Source of the DNA: a virus
Strand: one strand, 5' to 3'
Length of the DNA: 64,000 nucleotides
Virus record (IMG/VR): IMGVR_UViG_3300017992_000019
Span: 1-64,000 of that record
Shown: piece after piece, positions 13,035 to 23,562 of the stretch
How positions within the stretch are numbered: the stretch's first letter is position 1
Layout: every line of letters starts with the position of its first letter
Notes under the pieces: model-generated
Seen by the model: the letters and a program-made list of their open reading frames with translations, nothing else
The model's database searches: none
Told to the model about the DNA's origin: nothing
Translations under genes and position numbers: made by a program

Positions 13035-14798
13035 ATGACCGACGCCGCGAAAAAAACACAAAAGGAATTCTCCGGCCGGAGCGCAAGGCGCAACGTCCGA
13101 GCTCTCGTCTTTCCGATTCGCAAGCAAGAGTCGATCACCGAGACCGCGAAAGGAAAGTCGAAACAACTGCCCGAGGATCCTCTCGAGAATCTGATCGAGA
13201 CGGGCGAAGTGATCGAGCCTCCTTTCGAGATGCTCACCCTTGCCATGTTATCGGAACACTCAACCGAGCTCGGGCAATGTATCGCGGCAATGGAAACCAA
13301 CATTGAAGCATTCGGGCATCGGTTGATCCCGCGGGTCAATATCGAAAAGCCCGACCTCACCGACGACGAGAAAAAGATCGTCGGGCAAGTCAAGGCCGAG
13401 AGGATCCAGCTCGACAACTTTTTTGCGTATGCCGCGTTCCCTGATTCCTTTACCAAGTTTCGACGCAAGCTCCGCGTCGATCTCGAGCACACGGGGAACG
13501 CTTATTTTGAGGTGATCCGAAACGTCGCCGGCAAGATCCAAGCATTCTCGCACGTGCCGTCGTATCAAATGCGACTCGCGAAGCTCGAGCCCGATTTCGA
13601 TCTGTACGACGTGCCAATGTTGCAGATCCAAAAAGACGGTTCGATCGCAATTGAGACGATCAAGGCGAGTCGTCGCTTTCGCCGTTTCGTACAAGGCCGG
13701 ATATTGCACCGGCGCGATCTTTCTTTTGCCGGTGGTCTTGCAGTCCGTTGGTTCAAGGAATTCGGAGACCCGAGGCACTATGATTGCGACACCGGCGAAA
13801 TGGAATCCGAAAAGAAAAAGATTCCGGTCGAGAAACGCGCAAACGAGATCGTGCACCTCAAGCTCTACTCGTCGCGTTCGCCGTATGGGATCCCCCGGTA
13901 CGTCGGCAACCTGCTTTCGATCTTCGGCGATCGTGCGTCCGAGGAGATCAACTATATTACGTTTTCAAACAACAACATCCCGTCAATGTTTCTCCTTGTG
14001 AGCAACGGACAACTCACTCAAGGGTCGATCGACAGGATCAAGGATTTCACCGAGGCGCAGATCCAGGGGCAAGACAATTTTTCAAAGTTCATTATCGTCG
14101 AGGCCGAGTCGCCGGAGGTCGAGGGAGAGGATTCCGGGCAAGTCAAGATCGACGTCAAGCCTCTCACCTCGGAACAGCACAAGGATGCTCTATTTCAAAA
14201 CTACTCGAAAAACAACCAAGACAAGATCCGGCGCGCGTTCCGGTTGCCTCCTCTCCTCGTCGGCCGGACCGACGAATACACGAGAGCAACGGTCGAGGCG
14301 TCGCGGCGCATGGCCGACGAGCAAGTGTTCGCGCCGGAGCGCGACGACTTTGACGACTTCATAAATTTGAGGATCTTTCCTGCAATGGGTTACCCGTTGC
14401 ATCGGTACAAAACCAACTCACCCAACACGACCGACAACACCGAGCTTGTCAAGATCCTCGCCGGCGCCGAGAAAACGGGCGGCATGACTCCGAGGATCGC
14501 GCGGATCATGCTCGAGGATATCCTCGGGTTTGAGCTCCCTCCTTTCCCGGAAGGTTTCCCGGTCGACCGGCCTTTCTCCGAGACAATGGCGCAGGCCGTG
14601 AAAAACAAGGCCGACCCTGCCGAGGTTGGTCAACAGGTGACCGCGCTCAAGGCGATCGAAATGCTCACCGGATCAGACCTCCCCGATCTTTTCGAGGAGG
14701 CGGCAACGGTCGATCGTCTCGAGCGTATGCGCGAGCGTCTTGAAAAGCGTTGGCGCGAGGAGGTCGAGGCGATTCCTCACGAGCACGGGGAGGAGTAG
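13035..14798 (+). CDS. Portal protein (PBSX-like family)
   Basis: 587 residues after a TAGGAGGAAACA ribosome binding site. Order and length match phage portals: an N-terminal arm, the wing (HTGNAYFEVIRN, FSHVPSYQMRLAKLEPDFD), the conserved LKLYSSRSPYGIPRYVGNL segment and NNNIPSMFLLVSNG before the stem/clip region, and a long helical C terminus. The segment SPYGIPR is characteristic of the PBSX portal family. It forms the dodecameric DNA channel, docks TerL and nucleates the procapsid. It ends directly at the next start codon. Confidence 0.88.
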   Translation: MTDAAKKTQKEFSGRSARRNVRALVFPIRKQESITETAKGKSKQLPEDPLENLIETGEVIEPPFEMLTLAMLSEHSTELGQCIAAMETNIEAFGHRLIPRVNIEKPDLTDDEKKIVGQVKAERIQLDNFFAYAAFPDSFTKFRRKLRVDLEHTGNAYFEVIRNVAGKIQAFSHVPSYQMRLAKLEPDFDLYDVPMLQIQKDGSIAIETIKASRRFRRFVQGRILHRRDLSFAGGLAVRWFKEFGDPRHYDCDTGEMESEKKKIPVEKRANEIVHLKLYSSRSPYGIPRYVGNLLSIFGDRASEEINYITFSNNNIPSMFLLVSNGQLTQGSIDRIKDFTEAQIQGQDNFSKFIIVEAESPEVEGEDSGQVKIDVKPLTSEQHKDALFQNYSKNNQDKIRRAFRLPPLLVGRTDEYTRATVEASRRMADEQVFAPERDDFDDFINLRIFPAMGYPLHRYKTNSPNTTDNTELVKILAGAEKTGGMTPRIARIMLEDILGFELPPFPEGFPVDRPFSETMAQAVKNKADPAEVGQQVTALKAIEMLTGSDLPDLFEEAATVDRLERMRERLEKRWREEVEAIPHEHGEE

Positions 14799-17489
14799 TT
14801 GACAGCAGAGCTCGACAGATTGCACGACGGGCTCGCGGCCGTCGACGCGATAATCGCGAAAGCGATCGGGATCTCCGAGGTTGCACGGATCGCGCGGATC
14901 GAAACCCGACTCCGCGAGTATCTCAACGCGAAATGGAACGCTCGCAAGCGACGCGCGGTTGAGCGCGCGGGTAGCATGGCACGCGCCGGCAAGAGTGCGG
15001 CCGAGATTTCGCGAGCGGTCAAGGGGATCATGTCCGGGTGGGCCCGGGAGATCGCGCCGAGGTACAAGCGAGACTTTCGAGAAATATATAGACTCGCGCG
15101 GATCGCCGGCTGGAAAAAAGGCGGGCGCCTCACTCGTGGAACACTTGCGTACAAGGGACCGTCGCCTTTCACGGCCGAAGTCAAAAAAGGTGATCTATGG
15201 TCGATCCCGATCCAAGAGGTCACGAGCGAGGACACCTCGGTCAACACGATCCCGAGCGTGTTTCGTCGGGCGAAGTTTCGCCGAGGCCGGGTCAATGCCG
15301 ATATAGGCGGCGGCAAGTATGAGACCGCGACCCGATATCTCTCCGGCCGGGGCGTGACAAACGTCGTTTGGGATCCTTTTGCGCGCACGCCGGAGCATAA
15401 CAAGAAAGCGGCCGCGCGGATCCGCAACGGAGGGGCGGCGACTGCGACGGTCGCGAATGTGCTCAACGTGATCAAGGATCCGAAAGCACGCGACCGGGTG
15501 ATCCGACAGGCTGCAAACGCCGTCGGGAAAAACGGGGTCGCGTATTTCCAGGTATACGAGGGCGACGGATCCGGCAAGGGGGGCAAGACCGATCGCGGTT
15601 GGCAGGCAAACAAGTCTCTCTCGGCATACGTCGAATCGATCGCTCGGGTGTTCCGGTACGTGATCCCGCGCAACGGATATCTCGAGGCCCGGCAACGCAA
15701 CCCGGAGGAGATCAAGGAGCTCGAGAAAGCAACGGTGCCTCGTGCGGCCGTCGCGCTCCCGACTTTCGACGTTGTCGACACGGCCGCGGCCGGAGCTCTC
15801 GTCGATCGTCAAGTGTTCTGGATCGGTCGACATTACGACGACAACATTTCACAGTCGATCCGAGACACCGCTCGCGGATCTCTCATTGAAGCGGGCACGA
15901 ATCGGCAACGCGCCGGCGAGCTCATGCAACAACGGGTCGCGGAAAACCTCTCGCACGTCCGCACTCCGCGAGGTTGGCACGGGACGCAAGCACAGTATTT
16001 CGAGGGACTCGCGGCCAACGCCGCAACCGTCGGCCGGGTGCATGGTCAAATGCGTTCCTTTATCGATCTCGGGATCACGAAATACGAGATCCGAAATCCG
16101 AGCGACTCTCGCACGTGCCGAGTGTGCGCGCACATGGACGGAAAGGTTTTCACCGTCGCGCAAGGCGCGCAGCAAATGCAACAGGAGCTCGCGATCGCGG
16201 AGATCCCCGGACAGTCGCCGGAGGAGTATCGCGACGCGGTCAAGGCCGTGCACCCGTGGATCCAAGATTCAAACCGCGGCATGGAAAAGCTCAACAACAT
16301 CGGATCGGGGTTGCCAGGTAAGCAGGGCCCGGCCGACGCGCAGGCATACGCCGAGGCCGGTCTCTCGCTCCCTCCGTATCATTACCGGTGCCGGTGCACG
16401 GTCGACGTCTCGACCGAGGCCGGATCGTGGGAGGCGTTCGGCGCCGAGTCGGTGCCGATTCCGACACCTCCCGGGGTCAAGCCTCCGACGAAACCGTTTC
16501 CTCCTTTCAAGACGCACCCGACGAAACCGATCAACACTTTTTCGACGCAACGGTTGTCGGCCGCGCTCGGTCGCAAGATCAGGACGACAGCCGGCAACGC
16601 GAAAGCCGGGGTTGCGATCACACCGCAGGCACAGATCGCGGCACGACAGGAGCTCAACGGGTTGCTTGCCGAGTATGGTCTTGTTTCCAAAGACGCGATC
16701 CGCGGTCTCGACGACGCGATCGCAATGCTCGAAGTGCTCGAGACCGAGCACATGGTCGGCGTTTTGGGAACGCATAGCTGGCAAGGAGCGATCAGAATGC
16801 GCTCGTCGTCGATCGACGACGCGATTGATCTACTCGACGGCAAGATCAAGCCGGCGAAAGCCGGGACGATGCAAGCGATCAAGAATCAAGATCGTGTGCA
16901 TGGTATGAAAACTCTCGTGCACGAGGGAGTGCATGGTCACAGTCCGTTATTGTCCGAGGCTTATTACGGCATGGGAGTTCCGCTCGAGGAGGGTGCAGTC
17001 GAGTTGACCGCTCAACGGATCATGAAAGACAAGTTCGGGTTGCTATGGCAAGAGGTGCGAGCATCCGACTACAAGGAGTATGTCGAGGCACTTGCGGACA
17101 CGGTCGAGGGAGCGTTCAAAAAAGTGGTCGGCCGGCGCAAGGCATGGCAAGCCTACTCCGACAAGTTCGTCGAGGAGTCGAAAGTCATTCCATACAGGAA
17201 AAGCAACGTCGGCCGGCACCTCGCGTCGGATGCAACGATCAGAATGCAAAGCACGTCTCATTTCATATCAACGCATAAACAGTTTCTCGACGACTTCGCG
17301 GCCGCGGTTGAGGTGCCGTCGGAGCTCACGGCCGGGTTGAGCAAGCAACAGATCAAGGAGCTCACCGAAAAGATCCGCAAGGAGGTTCGGGAGAGGTCGG
17401 AGAAAAAATTAGTCACCGCGGTACGCAAGCGCGCGAAGCGGCGAGGCGACCCGGTGCCGAAAGCAAGATACATGCGATTTTCGGGGTGA
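14799..17489 (+). CDS. MuF-type head protein fused to methyltransferase-like and zincin domains
   Basis: 896 residues, starting at TTG 14799 directly after the portal stop (ribosome binding site GGGGAGGAG). Three parts are visible. Residues about 130-290 look like a class I methyltransferase: ADIGGGKYE (D168, G170-172) as motif I, a VLNVI segment, then GVAYFQVYEGDG. Residues about 330-545 are the SPP1 gp7/MuF head-morphogenesis domain, with SRTCRVCAHMDGKVF and YHYRCRCTVDV cysteines. Residues about 600-800 hold a zincin: HEGVH at 708-712 and a downstream LEEGAVEL (E730/E731/E735) as possible third ligand. MuF proteins bind the portal and a few copies enter the head; C-terminal effector domains are known on MuF proteins. 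Being packaged and injected is inference. Confidence 0.8.
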   Translation: MTAELDRLHDGLAAVDAIIAKAIGISEVARIARIETRLREYLNAKWNARKRRAVERAGSMARAGKSAAEISRAVKGIMSGWAREIAPRYKRDFREIYRLARIAGWKKGGRLTRGTLAYKGPSPFTAEVKKGDLWSIPIQEVTSEDTSVNTIPSVFRRAKFRRGRVNADIGGGKYETATRYLSGRGVTNVVWDPFARTPEHNKKAAARIRNGGAATATVANVLNVIKDPKARDRVIRQAANAVGKNGVAYFQVYEGDGSGKGGKTDRGWQANKSLSAYVESIARVFRYVIPRNGYLEARQRNPEEIKELEKATVPRAAVALPTFDVVDTAAAGALVDRQVFWIGRHYDDNISQSIRDTARGSLIEAGTNRQRAGELMQQRVAENLSHVRTPRGWHGTQAQYFEGLAANAATVGRVHGQMRSFIDLGITKYEIRNPSDSRTCRVCAHMDGKVFTVAQGAQQMQQELAIAEIPGQSPEEYRDAVKAVHPWIQDSNRGMEKLNNIGSGLPGKQGPADAQAYAEAGLSLPPYHYRCRCTVDVSTEAGSWEAFGAESVPIPTPPGVKPPTKPFPPFKTHPTKPINTFSTQRLSAALGRKIRTTAGNAKAGVAITPQAQIAARQELNGLLAEYGLVSKDAIRGLDDAIAMLEVLETEHMVGVLGTHSWQGAIRMRSSSIDDAIDLLDGKIKPAKAGTMQAIKNQDRVHGMKTLVHEGVHGHSPLLSEAYYGMGVPLEEGAVELTAQRIMKDKFGLLWQEVRASDYKEYVEALADTVEGAFKKVVGRRKAWQAYSDKFVEESKVIPYRKSNVGRHLASDATIRMQSTSHFISTHKQFLDDFAAAVEVPSELTAGLSKQQIKELTEKIRKEVRERSEKKLVTAVRKRAKRRGDPVPKARYMRFSG

Positions 17490-17708: not shown

Positions 17709-20700
17709 ATGGGAAAGCAACGACGACAAGTTGACCCGACGCCGGCGCCGCAACCGGGGCCGAGGTCTCGAAAGCGGCGAGCTCGCGTTCCGGGCGAGCG
17801 AGGTGTCGCTCACCCGGTGATCAAGTCGATCGACACGCCGGCGCTTGACGACGGCGGCAAGCTCGCGCCGGCGAAAGGCAAGGGAGGAACACTCCTCGTC
17901 GAGGATCAGGAGGAGGTCACTTTCGCGCCGGTGATTTTCAAGGGCGAGTTTGAGGTCGTGAAACAGATCCGCAACGACGCCTCGAAAATCTTTGTATGCT
18001 TTCGATTGCCCGAGGCGATCCGCACAAAGCTCTCGGAGCTTTCAACCGCACTCGTGAAAGATCGCGCGGATCCCGAGGACGTCGATCACGTGACCTTGTT
18101 GTATGTGCCGAGCGACAAGGAGATCACCGAGGAGGTCGCAAGCAAGGCCGCGGCGGCGGCGAGAGACGCGCTCAAGAAATTCGAGCTCGGGCCGGTCAAG
18201 GCCCGGTTGCAGGGTTGGGGATATTTCGACGGCGCCGAGAAAGGCGAGGAGCGGAGCACCGCGCTCGTTGCTCTCCTTGACGCTCCCGGGTTGGCCGAGG
18301 TGCACCTCGTGCTCAAGGCCGCGCTCACCGAGGCCGGTCTCCCGGCCGACGAGCAGACACACGGGTTTGTTCCGCACGCGACGCTCGCATATCTCGAGGC
18401 CGGCGAGCGGATCGAGAATCTCCCGGAGCTCGGCGACGAGATCGTGATCAACGAGCTTGAGCTCGTGCACTCTGAGACCTACCGGATCCCGATCGGAGGC
18501 AAGGTCGAGAAATCGGATCCGCGTTCCGACACGCCGTGGGATCCCTCTCACCTCGAGGACCGAGCGAGCGAGCAACTTGTCGCTCGACATTGGGATTTGC
18601 ACCTCGAGTTTCGGCAACCCGGCCGGCCGACGAGTGCGCTTGTCAACGAGCACGCGCGGATCGTCGACGAGCTTTTCGGCCGCGGTGTGAAACATCCGGC
18701 ACCGCCCGACAACGGGCTCGACGATCTCTCGGAGGATTTCGAGGAGTATGAGAGCAAGCAACCCGACTGGACACGACCCATGCGACCAAAGATCCTCGAC
18801 GACCTCGAGAAACGGGTCGATCCGAATCCGGGAGTGTTTGCCTCGCCGGGAGGCAAGGCGCGGATCGCCGAGGCGCTTGTCAAGATGCTCCCGTCGCATT
18901 CAACCTATGTCGAGCCTTTTGCCGGAGGCGCCGCGGTGCTTTTCAAAAAGGAGCCGTGCGACGTCGAGGTGCTCAACGATCTCGACGAGTCGATCGTGCA
19001 AGCGTACAAAGACGTCAAGGCGATCACGAACGCCGAGCTCGAGCAACTCCGGGGCAAGGATTGGGTCGGCAAGCGTGCGACGTTCCGGCGACTGCACAAA
19101 TCGCAACCGAGCAACCGGGTCGAGCGGTTGTATAAATTCTTGTACGTCTCGTTTTTCTCCTACGGGTCGACGCGCGGCAAGGGATACAACCCGGTTCGCG
19201 ACGGCCGCAACCCGGTTGACACGATACTCGGCCGGATCGAGCGCGGCCGCAAGCGACTCAAGGGAGTGCGTCTCATGTGCGGCGACTACGCCGCGACGAT
19301 CAAAGCGCACGACAGCAAGGGAACGGTTTTCTTTCTCGATCCGCCGTATGCCGGTTATTGTGCCGACCTCGGCGAGGGCAAGTTCGACGAGGAGAAATTC
19401 GTCGAGACGCTCAAGAATCTCAAGGGCAAGTTTGTCTTGACCTACGGCGCGAGATCGAAACTCATGTCGAAACTTCGCGCGGCCGGATTCAAGATCAAGC
19501 GGATCGCGATCCCCCGCACCGGTCTCGGTCTCACGTCGCGCGACGAGAAAGGCGAACGCCGCACCGATCTCACGACGCTCGTTGTCTCGAATTTCGAGAC
19601 GACAAAAAAGGCCGCGGCCGGAGAGGAATTCCTCGTCGACGTGACCGACGGCGAGATCGTCGAGCTCGAGAAACGACTCGACCCGGAGGCGCCGCGGCGA
19701 TTCACGGTTCACCGACACTGGCGCGGCGGCGAGTCGCACGTTGACTTGAGGATCGAAAAGGGCAACCTCCTCGAGGGTTGGTCACTCGAGCAGAATCCGA
19801 CCAACGCGGAGCCCGTCGAGACACTCGCGGCCGCGCAGGAAATCGGCGGCGATTGGTTCCAACGGGAGGAGACCGCGGCCGTGCGAAAGGACTTGCACCC
19901 GCTCAAGTGGCTTGACGTCGAGGGCGTGACCAAGCGAGGCGAGGGCGGGCAGGATCCGATCGGCGGCAACTCGGAATTTCCGGGTGTGTTTCATATTGTC
20001 GAGAAAGGTCTCGCCGAAATCGGAGCGGTCAAGCCGTGGTTGCGCGAGTTTTGGTTGCACGGCGAGCTCGGCCGGTGCCGGTTGATTCTCAAGCAAGTCG
20101 CTTTTCCGATCGTGAAAGCACGACACTCGAGGTCGCGTTGCATGTTTGAAGGGTGCAAGCGAGCTCCCGAGGTCGACGTGTTGTGGGCCGACGGCCGCGG
20201 GCGCGCGTGGTTTTGCGAGGAGCACCTCGAGGCATGGAAACAGGGATTCAAGGATCGCGGTGTCGAGGGATATCTCGAGATCGTCGGTGAGAAAAAAGTC
20301 ACGACCGGAGAGGTGCCGGAGAAATGGGCCGACGTGCACAAGGGCGTCGACGTGGTCGTCGTGACCAAGGAGATCCCACCGAGCGAAATTGGATCGAGGT
20401 GGATCGCAACCCGGCCGGAGAATCCGATGCCGTATGTGCTCGGGCTTGACGCGGTCGAAAAGGGTTGGATCCCTCCGACCGGGATCTCCGCGCTCCCGGC
20501 CGGCGTCCGAAAACAGATCCCGGAGGCGTTCCGATATTGGGAAAAGGAGAACGCTCTCGAGACTCGCGATCGACTTGTCGAGGAGATCCAGGACGGCAAG
20601 ATCAAGGTCAACCTCACGAAACGGATCGACATGGTCGAGGCGCAACTCGAGGTTCCGATCCAGAAAGTCGACACCGACAAGCGACTCGTGACCGGCGTTG

Positions 20701-21014
20701 TGCTCGAGCCCGACGAGGTCGACGCACAAGGCGACACGATCGACGAGGAGGCGATCGAGCGAGCGGCGCATAATTTCCTCGCGAGGTACAACAAGGAAAC
20801 CGAGATCGGCAACCTACACAAGATTTTCGGGCAAAACGGTCTCGAGCTCGTCGAGAGTTGGATCGCGCCGGTCGATATGAAGCTCGGCAAGGGAAAAGTC
20901 AAACGCGGAACGTGGCTTATGACAATTCGCGTGCTCAACGATCACACGTGGCAACAGGTCAAGACAGGCGAGATCACGGGTCTCTCGATCGGCGGCACCG
21001 CGTCGGTTATATGA
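17709..21014 (+). CDS. Giant fusion: 2H phosphoesterase, DNA adenine methyltransferase, LigD-like segments, XkdF prohead protease
   Basis: 1101 residues with no internal stop. Domains in order: a basic N terminus; a 2H phosphoesterase (HVTL at H127, HATL at H223); a LigD phosphoesterase-like HWDLHLEFR near 293; a D12-class DNA adenine methyltransferase, about 358-635 (YVEPFAGGAAVLF as motif I, DPPY at 544-547); a second LigD-like unit (VHRHWRGG, HVDLRIE) near 660; a ligase-like WLHGELGRCRLILKQ; a Cys/His zinc finger near 811-843; and a C-terminal XkdF-like protease, about 975-1101 (DEVDAQGDTID, GNLHKIF, GLSIGG). The last domain matures the head. The others could act on nucleic acid after co-packaging. 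All key motifs of the methyltransferase and 2H parts are intact. Confidence 0.82.
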   Translation: MGKQRRQVDPTPAPQPGPRSRKRRARVPGERGVAHPVIKSIDTPALDDGGKLAPAKGKGGTLLVEDQEEVTFAPVIFKGEFEVVKQIRNDASKIFVCFRLPEAIRTKLSELSTALVKDRADPEDVDHVTLLYVPSDKEITEEVASKAAAAARDALKKFELGPVKARLQGWGYFDGAEKGEERSTALVALLDAPGLAEVHLVLKAALTEAGLPADEQTHGFVPHATLAYLEAGERIENLPELGDEIVINELELVHSETYRIPIGGKVEKSDPRSDTPWDPSHLEDRASEQLVARHWDLHLEFRQPGRPTSALVNEHARIVDELFGRGVKHPAPPDNGLDDLSEDFEEYESKQPDWTRPMRPKILDDLEKRVDPNPGVFASPGGKARIAEALVKMLPSHSTYVEPFAGGAAVLFKKEPCDVEVLNDLDESIVQAYKDVKAITNAELEQLRGKDWVGKRATFRRLHKSQPSNRVERLYKFLYVSFFSYGSTRGKGYNPVRDGRNPVDTILGRIERGRKRLKGVRLMCGDYAATIKAHDSKGTVFFLDPPYAGYCADLGEGKFDEEKFVETLKNLKGKFVLTYGARSKLMSKLRAAGFKIKRIAIPRTGLGLTSRDEKGERRTDLTTLVVSNFETTKKAAAGEEFLVDVTDGEIVELEKRLDPEAPRRFTVHRHWRGGESHVDLRIEKGNLLEGWSLEQNPTNAEPVETLAAAQEIGGDWFQREETAAVRKDLHPLKWLDVEGVTKRGEGGQDPIGGNSEFPGVFHIVEKGLAEIGAVKPWLREFWLHGELGRCRLILKQVAFPIVKARHSRSRCMFEGCKRAPEVDVLWADGRGRAWFCEEHLEAWKQGFKDRGVEGYLEIVGEKKVTTGEVPEKWADVHKGVDVVVVTKEIPPSEIGSRWIATRPENPMPYVLGLDAVEKGWIPPTGISALPAGVRKQIPEAFRYWEKENALETRDRLVEEIQDGKIKVNLTKRIDMVEAQLEVPIQKVDTDKRLVTGVVLEPDEVDAQGDTIDEEAIERAAHNFLARYNKETEIGNLHKIFGQNGLELVESWIAPVDMKLGKGKVKRGTWLMTIRVLNDHTWQQVKTGEITGLSIGGTASVI

Positions 21015-21328: not shown

Positions 21329-22273
21329 ATGTCCGAAAAAGCAAAGCGACGGTTGCTTGAGGTTGAAGTTGACGAGGTTTCGCTCGTAGATCGAGCGGCC
21401 AATTTGAGACGGTTCCTAGTAATCAAACGACTGGAGGAAAAAGAAATGGGAGCTTTCAAAAAAGACGAGATCAAGAAAGGCGAGGAGATGACCGAGGAGG
21501 AAAAGAAGAAAGCCGAGGAGGCCAAGAAAGCCGAGGAGGCCAAGAAAGCCGAAGCGGTCAAGAAATCCGAGGAGGAGATCAAGGAGATCCTCAAGGCCAT
21601 GAACCCGGCCGCGGTTGCCGGGATGCTCCGCGGTCTCAAGGGCGCACCCAAGGAGGCGGTCGACGCTCTGATCCAGTGGGCCGAAGGTCAGGCGAAAAAG
21701 GCCGAGACCAAGAAGTCGGCCGACGGTGACGGCGACGATCCTCCCGCGGATCCTCCCGCGGATCCCCCGGCCGATCCCGAGCCGGCCGATCCCCCCGCGG
21801 ATCCCCCGGCCGATCCCGAGCCGGCCGAAGTCAAGAAAGCGGCCGTCGAGATCCACGACGACGGCACCGTGATCGTCAACGGCGCTCCGGTGGTCAAGGG
21901 CAAGACGTTCACCCCCTCGCGCAACAGCGCGATCAAGGAGGTGATCGGCAAGCTGATCAAGCTGGCCGGCGACGTCGGTGATTCCGAGACCCTCAAAGCG
22001 ATCGCCGACATGGTCAAGGAGCTCCCCGACGACGCGAATCCGGGACAAGGAGTCAAGGCCGTCGGCACGGCCGGAGGCGTCGCGCTCAAGAAAGCCGAGG
22101 AGGAGATCGAGAAACTTCGCAAGGAGCTCGACGAGGCCAAAGCGGAACGCGCCGACGTGACCAAACGACTCGACGAGATCGAAAAGACCCGCGAGCCGAG
22201 CAAGTCGGTCGACGGCGACGGCGGCACCGACAAAGAAACCATGAAAAAGGAGTTTTGGGACGGCGTGATCTAG
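21329..22273 (+). CDS. Capsid scaffold-like protein ending in FWDGVI
   Basis: 314 residues from ATG 21329. The N terminus (EVDEVSLVDRAANLRRFLVIKR) matches the leader found in XkdF-type protease/scaffold proteins, although the protease domain sits in the 1101-residue fusion upstream. Next come a Lys/Glu coiled coil (about 45-85), a repeat of DPPA/DPEPA units (about 137-166), a small folded part and a second coiled coil (about 255-300). The last residues, KKEFWDGVI, recur at the ends of two other proteins in the window. Length, charge, coiled coils and position directly before the major capsid gene fit a scaffold. The terminal peptide may bind the capsid shell. Confidence 0.75.
   Translation: MSEKAKRRLLEVEVDEVSLVDRAANLRRFLVIKRLEEKEMGAFKKDEIKKGEEMTEEEKKKAEEAKKAEEAKKAEAVKKSEEEIKEILKAMNPAAVAGMLRGLKGAPKEAVDALIQWAEGQAKKAETKKSADGDGDDPPADPPADPPADPEPADPPADPPADPEPAEVKKAAVEIHDDGTVIVNGAPVVKGKTFTPSRNSAIKEVIGKLIKLAGDVGDSETLKAIADMVKELPDDANPGQGVKAVGTAGGVALKKAEEEIEKLRKELDEAKAERADVTKRLDEIEKTREPSKSVDGDGGTDKETMKKEFWDGVI
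21737..21826 (+). repeat. GATCCxCCCGCG-type tandem repeat coding DPPA/DPEPA
   Basis: Seven consecutive units, five of 12 nt (DPPA) and two of 15 nt (DPEPA), arranged 3 short, 1 long, 2 short, 1 long. Each unit starts with GATC. The repeat makes a rigid Pro-rich linker in the scaffold-like protein and is a likely site for length variation between relatives. Confidence 0.85.
22253..22273 (+). repeat. FWDGVI-coding repeat, copy 1
   Basis: TTTTGGGACGGCGTGATC followed by TAG encodes the last residues (FWDGVI, stop) of the scaffold-like protein. The same 21 nt recur at 30303-30323 (two changes, stop TGA) and 36438-36458 (identical), always at the very end of a gene and in the same frame. Confidence 0.9.
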
Positions 22274-22353: not shown

Positions 22354-23562
22354 ATGCCCGAAAGAGTCTCAAACGAGGAGTTGGTGCAGAAAGCCCTGAT
22401 CGAGACCGGTGCGCTCTCGGCGGCCGGCAAACTCAACCCGGCGCAAGCCGACAAATTCATCGACTATGTTGTCGATGAGAGCGTGTTGAAAAACAACGCG
22501 CGCGTCGAGCGGTTCCGCAACGAGACGCTCGAGATCGACAAGATCGGGATCGGCCGGCGCGTCGCGTTGCCGAAAGCCGAAGCGGCCGACCCCGGTCTCC
22601 GGCGCGGGATCGAGACGAGCAAGATCGTGCTCGAGCCCCGGACCGTCGCGGTGCCTTTCGAGGTCTCCGACGAGTTCCTCGAAATCAATCTCGAGGGTCA
22701 GGCACTAGCCGACAAGATTGTGCAGCTTATGGCGCGCCAGTTTTCAAACGACCTCGAGGAGTTGTATTTGTTCGCCGACTCCCTCGGGCCGTCGATCGTC
22801 GAGAGCGACTATCGCTCGGGCGGATCGGCAACTCAGCACGTCAAAGACGAGTATCTCGGTCTCCTGCCAAGTCCGGGCGGGTGGTTGCGTCGTGCCGACT
22901 CCGGTCACGTCGTGGATCACGAGGGCGCAAACATCGGTCTGTCGGTGTTCGGCAAGATGCTCCGCAACATGCCGCAGAAATTCAGGCGCAACAAGGCCGC
23001 GCTCCGGTTTTTCATTGCGCCGGATCTTTCTCAGTTGTACGTCGAGAAACTGAGCACCCGGGCAACCGGTCTCGGCGACGCCTCGGCGGCGGGCGCCGAT
23101 CACCGGCCGTATGGTGTGCAGTTGGTCGAGGTGCCGTTGTTCTCGTTCCTGCCCAAGGTCGTCGAGCACGTGACCTTGACCAACGAGGATCCGATCGCGC
23201 TCCGGTACAAGCCGGTTCAGAATGAGGTCGTGACTCCGTCCGATCTCGCCGGCACCCCGACGACTCCGTATGTCGAGGGCACCGACTACAACATGGATTA
23301 TGCCAACGGGACGATCGCTCGCGACGCCGGAGGCTCGCTCCCGACGCCGGTCACCGTCAAGATCACTTACGAGGCGAATCCTCAACTGTTGCTCACGCAT
23401 CAGTCGAATTTCGTTCTCGGCATCGGGCGGGATATCAAGATCGAAAAGGATCGCGATATCTACCGCGGTGTCTGGTCTTACATGGTCACCGCAAAGGTTG
23501 CCGCGCAGTTCGAGGAAACCGATGCGTTGGTCAAGGGCGTCAACATCGGCCAGGGCGTGTAA
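22354..23562 (+). CDS. Major capsid protein (HK97-fold, inferred)
   Basis: 402 residues from ATG 22354 after AAGGAGGAATCAGTC. The layout is a major head protein: N-terminal helices, then RVALPKAEAADPG and a VPFEVSDEFLEINLEG segment typical of the spine helix and E-loop transition, a GLLPSPGGWLRR loop, the Pro-rich QLVEVPLFSF and the terminal QSNFVLGIGRDIKIEKDRDIYRG. Directly behind the scaffold, with a strong ribosome binding site and a 3' hairpin, it is the expected place for the most abundant virion protein. The fold is inferred from pattern and position. Confidence 0.85.
   Translation: MPERVSNEELVQKALIETGALSAAGKLNPAQADKFIDYVVDESVLKNNARVERFRNETLEIDKIGIGRRVALPKAEAADPGLRRGIETSKIVLEPRTVAVPFEVSDEFLEINLEGQALADKIVQLMARQFSNDLEELYLFADSLGPSIVESDYRSGGSATQHVKDEYLGLLPSPGGWLRRADSGHVVDHEGANIGLSVFGKMLRNMPQKFRRNKAALRFFIAPDLSQLYVEKLSTRATGLGDASAAGADHRPYGVQLVEVPLFSFLPKVVEHVTLTNEDPIALRYKPVQNEVVTPSDLAGTPTTPYVEGTDYNMDYANGTIARDAGGSLPTPVTVKITYEANPQLLLTHQSNFVLGIGRDIKIEKDRDIYRGVWSYMVTAKVAAQFEETDALVKGVNIGQGV

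What the first reader, a model, noticed from the sequence alone, without database searches (positions are those of the whole stretch)
17709..21014. Prohead protease fused to a 2H phosphoesterase, a DNA adenine methyltransferase and LigD-like domains
One 1101-codon frame holds two HxTL motifs (H127, H223), a D12 methyltransferase with motif I and DPPY (544), two LigD phosphoesterase-like segments, a zinc finger and a C-terminal XkdF-type protease. Prohead proteases act inside the immature shell, so their fused parts should end up inside the head. If the protease cuts itself free, a methyltransferase and an RNA-end- or cyclic-nucleotide-cleaving 2H enzyme would be packaged and injected with the DNA. 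P1 DarB is a known precedent for a packaged methylase. 2H enzymes can destroy 2-5A-type or cyclic signals used in anti-phage defence. The domains are seen; packaging and anti-defence roles are inference.
Basis: partly seen in the sequence, partly recalled or inferred. Interest (0 to 1): 0.9.

Follow-up and report, generated by a model that had tools for sequence, protein, structure and literature searches.

The report
Capsid protease carrying DNA-enzyme cargo
A virus gene fuses the protease that matures the capsid to several DNA- and RNA-acting enzymes, and it turns out to belong to a large, apparently undescribed family in which DNA-ligase and DNA-end-repair parts hang on the same protease, suggesting (not proving) that these viruses pack repair and protection enzymes into their particles.

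Summary
The 1101-codon frame is real. HMM and AlphaFold/Foldseek evidence confirm a LigT-type 2H phosphoesterase, a Dam-type D12 adenine methyltransferase, one LigD-type 3'-phosphoesterase (PE), a zinc-finger-like segment and a C-terminal XkdF prohead protease. A motif unique to the protein ('PYVx4AVxKxWxP') retrieved 59 viral contigs. Nearly all encode giant proteins or adjacent genes built as [MTase / metallo-beta-lactamase / 2H]-ATP-dependent DNA ligase-PE-motif-PE. In 19 contigs the protein ends in XkdF; in others a separate protease gene follows. They sit between the portal/MuF and scaffold/major capsid genes. The window protein is a ligase-less member. Relatives occur in archaeal virus ANMV-1 and in contigs binned to archaea. 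A motif EK[QR] is 8.5-fold enriched at domain junctions, as expected if the protease cuts the cargo free. Best reading: the protease carries DNA-protecting and end-repair enzymes into the prohead and releases them there. Packaging, cleavage, delivery and an anti-defence role of 2H are unproven. This resembles 'polyvalent proteins', but with an unreported vehicle (XkdF) and cargo core (ligase + LigD-PE).

The parts
17709..21014 (+). whole polyprotein P0001 (1101 aa)
17709..17975 (+). N-terminal basic, disordered leader (residues 1-89), pLDDT <50
17976..18488 (+). 2H phosphoesterase (LigT/CPDase type), H127xT and H223xT
18837..19514 (+). D12 (Dam-type) adenine methyltransferase, EPFAGG and DPPY544
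19689..20099 (+). LigD-type 3'-phosphoesterase (PE) domain with H-x7-H-x-D-x-R core
20124..20348 (+). zinc-finger-like segment Cx4C..Cx2H, shared with L032, L041, L071, L072
20400..20579 (+). 'PYVx4AVxKxWxP..G.SALP' module, hallmark of the family
20646..21011 (+). XkdF (Peptidase_S78_2) prohead protease; H1037 and S1093 invariant in 19/19 family members
18804..18818 (+). candidate processing site LEK|RV (residues 366-370) before the methyltransferase
19665..19679 (+). candidate processing site LEK|RL (residues 653-657) before the PE domain
13035..14798 (+). portal protein
14799..17489 (+). MuF-like minor head protein with weak methyltransferase-like segment
21287..22273 (+). scaffold-like protein with the N-terminal tag EVSLVDRAANLRRFLVIKR that usually precedes XkdF
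22354..23562 (+). major capsid-like protein (phrog_1623)

Best explanation
P0001 is a cargo-bearing prohead protease. Its C-terminal XkdF domain takes part in head assembly. It brings the N-terminal enzymes (2H, Dam-type methyltransferase, LigD-type phosphoesterase) into the prohead, cuts the linkers after K in [VLT]xK|[RQ] sites, and leaves the freed enzymes enclosed with the DNA. On infection, or while the DNA is inside the head, they protect and heal the genome: methylation against restriction, and trimming of 3' ends; in most relatives also ligation. Shown: the domains, their likely intact active-site motifs, the head-operon location, the recurrence of enzyme-XkdF fusions and the junction motif. 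Inferred: entry into the prohead, cleavage, retention, delivery and all enzyme activities.
For: Domains and folds. XkdF fused C-terminally in 19 other viral contigs from about 16 metagenomes, with open frames up to 1784 aa. Module shuffling upstream of a constant end: D12, C5 methyltransferase, 2H, metallo-beta-lactamase, ligase. Conserved head-gene order. The same protease in cultured phages is annotated as the capsid protease and lies at the same place, e.g. ICP1 gp125 next to scaffold, decoration and coat. EK[QR] at junctions 22 observed vs 4.75 expected, p = 2e-4; controls KE, RK and DK not enriched; found before three unrelated domains. PE motif conserved in nearly all members, ligase KxDG in nearly all. 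Precedents: packaged, processed P1 DdrB/DarA and 2H fused to MuF or portal (PMC5512222); prohead-protease-processed internal proteins in SPN3US, expected to be ejected (PMC10052503).
Against: No proteomics or assay. Propeptides cut by prohead proteases are generally expected to leave the head (PMC10052503), so freed cargo might be lost. P0001 lacks the 'EVSLVDRAANLRRFLVIK' tag that normally precedes XkdF; it is on the separate scaffold protein. Part of the EK[QR] signal before PE may be shared ancestry ('VEKQADPYM') rather than selection for cleavage. The cleavage specificity of XkdF is unknown to me. P0001 has no ligase, and none was found in its 94.9 kb record.
Confidence: 0.5

Rival explanations
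1. Late cytoplasmic polyprotein: the protease simply releases the enzymes in the infected cell, where they methylate and repair progeny DNA before or during packaging; nothing is carried in the virion.
For: Methyltransferase and ligase work equally well on progeny DNA; in many relatives ligase-PE is a gene separate from the protease.
Against: Does not explain why the enzymes are tied to a protease normally confined to the prohead, nor their constant place in the head operon even when split.
Confidence: 0.25
2. The enzymes act only inside the prohead, healing nicks and ends during packaging, and are not delivered to the next host.
For: Ligase plus 3'-phosphoesterase core in the family; position next to portal.
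Against: Ligase and methyltransferase need ATP or SAM, whose supply inside a filling head is doubtful (general knowledge); 2H has no obvious packaging role.
Confidence: 0.12
3. The N-terminal part is a giant propeptide or scaffold-like spacer whose enzyme folds are now structural and are discarded on maturation.
For: Propeptides of prohead-protease substrates usually leave the head (PMC10052503); L035 has lost the PE catalytic residues and the ligase.
Against: Active-site motifs of 2H, D12, PE and ligase are otherwise conserved across divergent relatives.
Confidence: 0.1
4. Assembly or frame error joining separate genes.
For: Metagenomic contig only.
Against: Second contig at 100% identity, uniform coding signature, 19 analogous fusions elsewhere.
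Confidence: 0.02

Closest known systems
Polyvalent proteins of phages and plasmids (Iyer et al. 2017, PMC5512222), e.g. P1 DdrB/DarA
   Same: Large multidomain proteins encoded with virion genes, including N6A methylases and 2H domains, sometimes fused to head proteins (MuF, portal) and carrying their own peptidase; some shown to be processed and packaged.
   Different: Here the vehicle is the XkdF prohead protease and the conserved core is ATP-dependent DNA ligase plus LigD-type phosphoesterase; that paper's text has no occurrence of XkdF, LigD or DNA ligase.
XkdF / Peptidase_S78_2 capsid proteases of cultured phages (ICP1 gp125, PVP-SE1, HSTV-1, HCTV-2, Lactococcus ul36-type)
   Same: Same protease family and same position between portal and scaffold/capsid genes.
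   Different: In the records inspected the protease gene is about 134-533 aa, alone or with a C-terminal extension, with no annotated enzyme cargo.
Bacterial/archaeal LigD and NHEJ phosphoesterase
   Same: PE fold and H-x7-H-x-D-x-R core; most relatives add a KxDG ligase plus OB-like segment.
   Different: No Ku in 49 records; order LIG-PE-PYV-PE, viral head context, fused protease; P0001 lacks ligase.
ANMV-1 virus protein AJP62006 ('ATP-dependent DNA ligase')
   Same: LIG-OB-PE-PYV-PE core, between portal-like and MuF-like genes.
   Different: No fused XkdF and no methyltransferase or 2H module.

Membership tests
XkdF (Peptidase_S78_2) prohead protease | Pfam PF14550 match above cut-off | tested here: met
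   112.6 vs 24 bits
XkdF (Peptidase_S78_2) prohead protease | located between portal and scaffold/major capsid genes | tested here: met
XkdF (Peptidase_S78_2) prohead protease | proteolytic activity | not testable with these tools
   candidate H1037 and S1093 invariant
2H phosphoesterase | two HxT/S motifs in a LigT-like fold | tested here: met
D12/Dam adenine methyltransferase | motif I (FxGG), DPPY and Dam fold | tested here: met
LigD 3'-phosphoesterase | PE fold and H/H/D/R metal-site motif | tested here: met
   Foldseek prob 1.00 to 3p43, 3n9d, 5dmp; motif; Pfam below cut-off
LigD / NHEJ system | ligase domain in the same protein or genome | tested here: not met
   absent from P0001 and from the 94.9 kb record; present in most relatives
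LigD / NHEJ system | Ku partner | tested here: not met
   0 of 49 records; records may be incomplete
Polyvalent phage protein | several unrelated enzyme domains in one virion-operon protein | tested here: met
Polyvalent phage protein | packaged and injected | not testable with these tools
   no proteome available

The most novel reading that the evidence does not exclude
A widespread lineage of tailed viruses of bacteria and archaea loads a LigD-like end-joining set (ATP-dependent ligase, 3'-phosphoesterases, metallo-beta-lactamase nuclease, DNA methyltransferases, sometimes 2H) into the capsid by fusing it to, or encoding it beside, the prohead protease. The protease then cuts the set free, so that the genome arrives with its own Ku-independent end-healing and modification kit.
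Probability: 0.35. Interest if true: 0.88.

Novelty: new variant of a known kind. Interest (0 to 1): 0.77.

Why it matters
Virion-borne effectors are usually recognised by MuF, portal or giant DarB-like carriers. A prohead protease acting as carrier would be a simple, general way to load and release cargo, and could be tested directly. It would also place a ligase/phosphoesterase end-repair core in virions, bearing on how linear viral genomes are protected, repaired or circularised on entry, including in uncultured archaeal viruses.

Tried and rejected
The first degenerate DNA pattern was off by one base; the corrected one worked. Phage-collection tblastn of whole P0001 finds mostly ordinary stand-alone Dam genes, and the N-terminal third finds nothing. 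'DNA methyltransferase' labels on short XkdF genes in phage records appear to be propagated misannotation: those genes match the XkdF domain. Rejected: LigD identity for residue ~294. A Ku-dependent NHEJ reading was rejected because no Ku was found. Most genome-contig hits in Cupriavidus, Azoarcus, Oxalobacteraceae and gut MAGs look like chance pattern matches: no other family module was found there. In the 5.39 million open papers searched, none was found that describes this fusion; subscription papers are not covered. XkdF itself has no recognisable solved relative by sequence.

Full report
Observation. The frame 17709-21014 on the + strand encodes 1101 residues. Pfam places XkdF/Peptidase_S78_2 at 984-1100 (E 1.6e-32), a D12 methyltransferase at 380-580 (1.8e-17) and a 2'-5' RNA ligase/2H domain at 105-238 (2.1e-10), all above curated cut-offs; LigD_N at 675-747 is below its cut-off. 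PHROGs agree. Codon-position GC is uniform through the gene, and another IMG/VR contig carries residues 116-1101 at 100% identity, so a frame error is very unlikely.

Structure. Two AlphaFold models were made with alignments of relatives. The N-terminal half (mean pLDDT 70; leader disordered) matches E. coli Dam, T4Dam and DpnM (E down to 1.6e-12) and 2H enzymes drCPDase, LigT and AKAP18, with the anti-CBASS nuclease Acb1 lower in the list. The C-terminal half (pLDDT 80) matches the LigD 3'-phosphoesterase structures 3p43, 3p4h, 3n9d and 5dmp at probability 1.00. Two relatives give a weak match to the C-terminal part of pyrimidine-dimer glycosylase.

The family. A tblastn hit to AJP62006 of the archaeal virus ANMV-1 exposed a conserved stretch, PYVx4AVxKxWxP. 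As a degenerate DNA pattern it retrieved 59 viral loci. Iterated HMMs built here give the architectures. The common order is [cargo]-(four-His module)-ligase-OB-PE-(Zn)-PYV-PE'-(XkdF). Examples: L072 (1584 aa) four-His, D12, ligase, PE, Zn, PYV, PE', XkdF; L048 (1784 aa) with two D12 domains; L034 with a C5 methyltransferase, and a neighbouring gene 2H-D12-four-His; L032 (1768 aa in the full record) 2H, four-His, ligase, PE, Zn, PYV, with XkdF in the same open frame; L070 (610 aa) PE-PYV-PE'-XkdF with a neighbouring metallo-beta-lactamase-ligase gene. Pfam confirms ligase, D12, C5, metallo-beta-lactamase and 2H modules. P0001 is the variant 2H-fourHis-D12-PE-Zn-PYV-XkdF, without ligase or second PE; no ligase was found elsewhere in its 94.9 kb record, which may be incomplete.

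Fused versus split. In 50 records, strong XkdF matches lie inside the cargo protein in 19 contigs (10 with open frames above 1100 aa; a few are near-duplicates). In about ten others a divergent protease lies in a gene of its own. PHROGs name those downstream genes head maturation proteases, and name the flanking genes portal, MuF-like, scaffold-protease and major head proteins (portal). So the block is tied to the head operon whether or not the protease is fused. In cultured phages XkdF is small (about 134-533 aa in the records inspected) with no annotated enzyme cargo; ICP1 annotates it as capsid protease beside scaffold, decoration and coat genes.

Hosts. Genome-collection hits with real family modules come from contigs binned as Thermoprotei, Methanosarcinales, Thermoplasmata, Deltaproteobacteria and Candidatus Hatepunaea. 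ANMV-1 was assigned an archaeal host by its authors (PMC4372165). The window's own host is unknown; its terminase is remote from all cultured phages, with ANMV-1 among the best E-values.

Processing. Linkers of P0001 carry VEK|SDP, LEK|RVDP, LEK|RLDP and LTK|RID. Across 52 de-duplicated proteins EK[QR] occurs 22 times within 30 residues upstream of domain starts against 4.75 expected from circular shifts (p = 2e-4, the floor of the test); KE, RK and DK show no enrichment. It precedes methyltransferase, PE and XkdF domains, which are unrelated. The scaffold protein of the window and nearly all fused relatives begin with ...VSLVDRAANLRRFLVIKR or a close form, another [VI]xK|R string. This fits a lysine-directed processing site but does not prove one; shared ancestry of the PE leader explains part of the count.

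Mechanism. The most economical reading is that the protease domain brings the enzymes into the prohead and cuts them free there. They then protect and heal the enclosed or injected DNA by methylation and 3'-end repair, with ligation in most relatives. Entry, cleavage, retention, delivery and enzyme activity are inferences. The anti-signalling role of 2H is possible (2H enzymes include Acb1; proposed for phage 2H in PMC5512222), but 2H is rare in the family (3 contigs), so it cannot be the family's main purpose. The ligase-PE core can. Absence of Ku in 49 records argues against a full NHEJ copy.

Comparison and novelty. The idea of packaged multidomain effectors is established as polyvalent proteins (PMC5512222). 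That paper mentions neither XkdF, LigD nor DNA ligase. The jumbo-phage survey calls XkdF a likely head-processing peptidase, unrelated to the usual prohead peptidase family, in one group of phages, with no mention of cargo in the passages found (PMC7824862). Within the open literature searched, the fusion family was not described. I therefore file it as a new variant of a known kind.

Noticed in passing
window 14799-17489 (+): The MuF-like minor head protein upstream is itself a mosaic: sub-threshold methyltransferase-like segment (residues 168-257), MuF motif (422-535) and, by eye, a HEGVH...EE zincin-like motif near residues 700-735. It may be a second cargo-bearing head protein.
   Followed up: partly
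L048:1312-5214 and L072:2133-4868: The corresponding upstream minor-head genes in relatives are 912-1301 aa; L072's shows intein/Hint matches, i.e. an intein in a head protein.
   Followed up: no
L030:2758-8571, L069:2397-6098: LAGLIDADG endonuclease domains lie inside the giant proteins, probably inteins splitting PE or ligase regions.
   Followed up: no
window 21718-21812 (-): ARAGORN calls a tRNA-Pro antisense inside the Pro/Ala/Asp-rich repeat of the scaffold gene; probably a false call from the repeat.
   Followed up: no
phage records such as PP551948.2, NC_018088.1, PP496416.1: Short XkdF proteases are widely annotated 'DNA methyltransferase', apparently copied from PHROG 1530, whose profile ends in an XkdF domain.
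   Followed up: partly
L046, L047, L054, L057, L070: Metallo-beta-lactamase domains (possibly SNM1/Artemis-type nucleases) join the ligase-PE block in several relatives.
   Followed up: no
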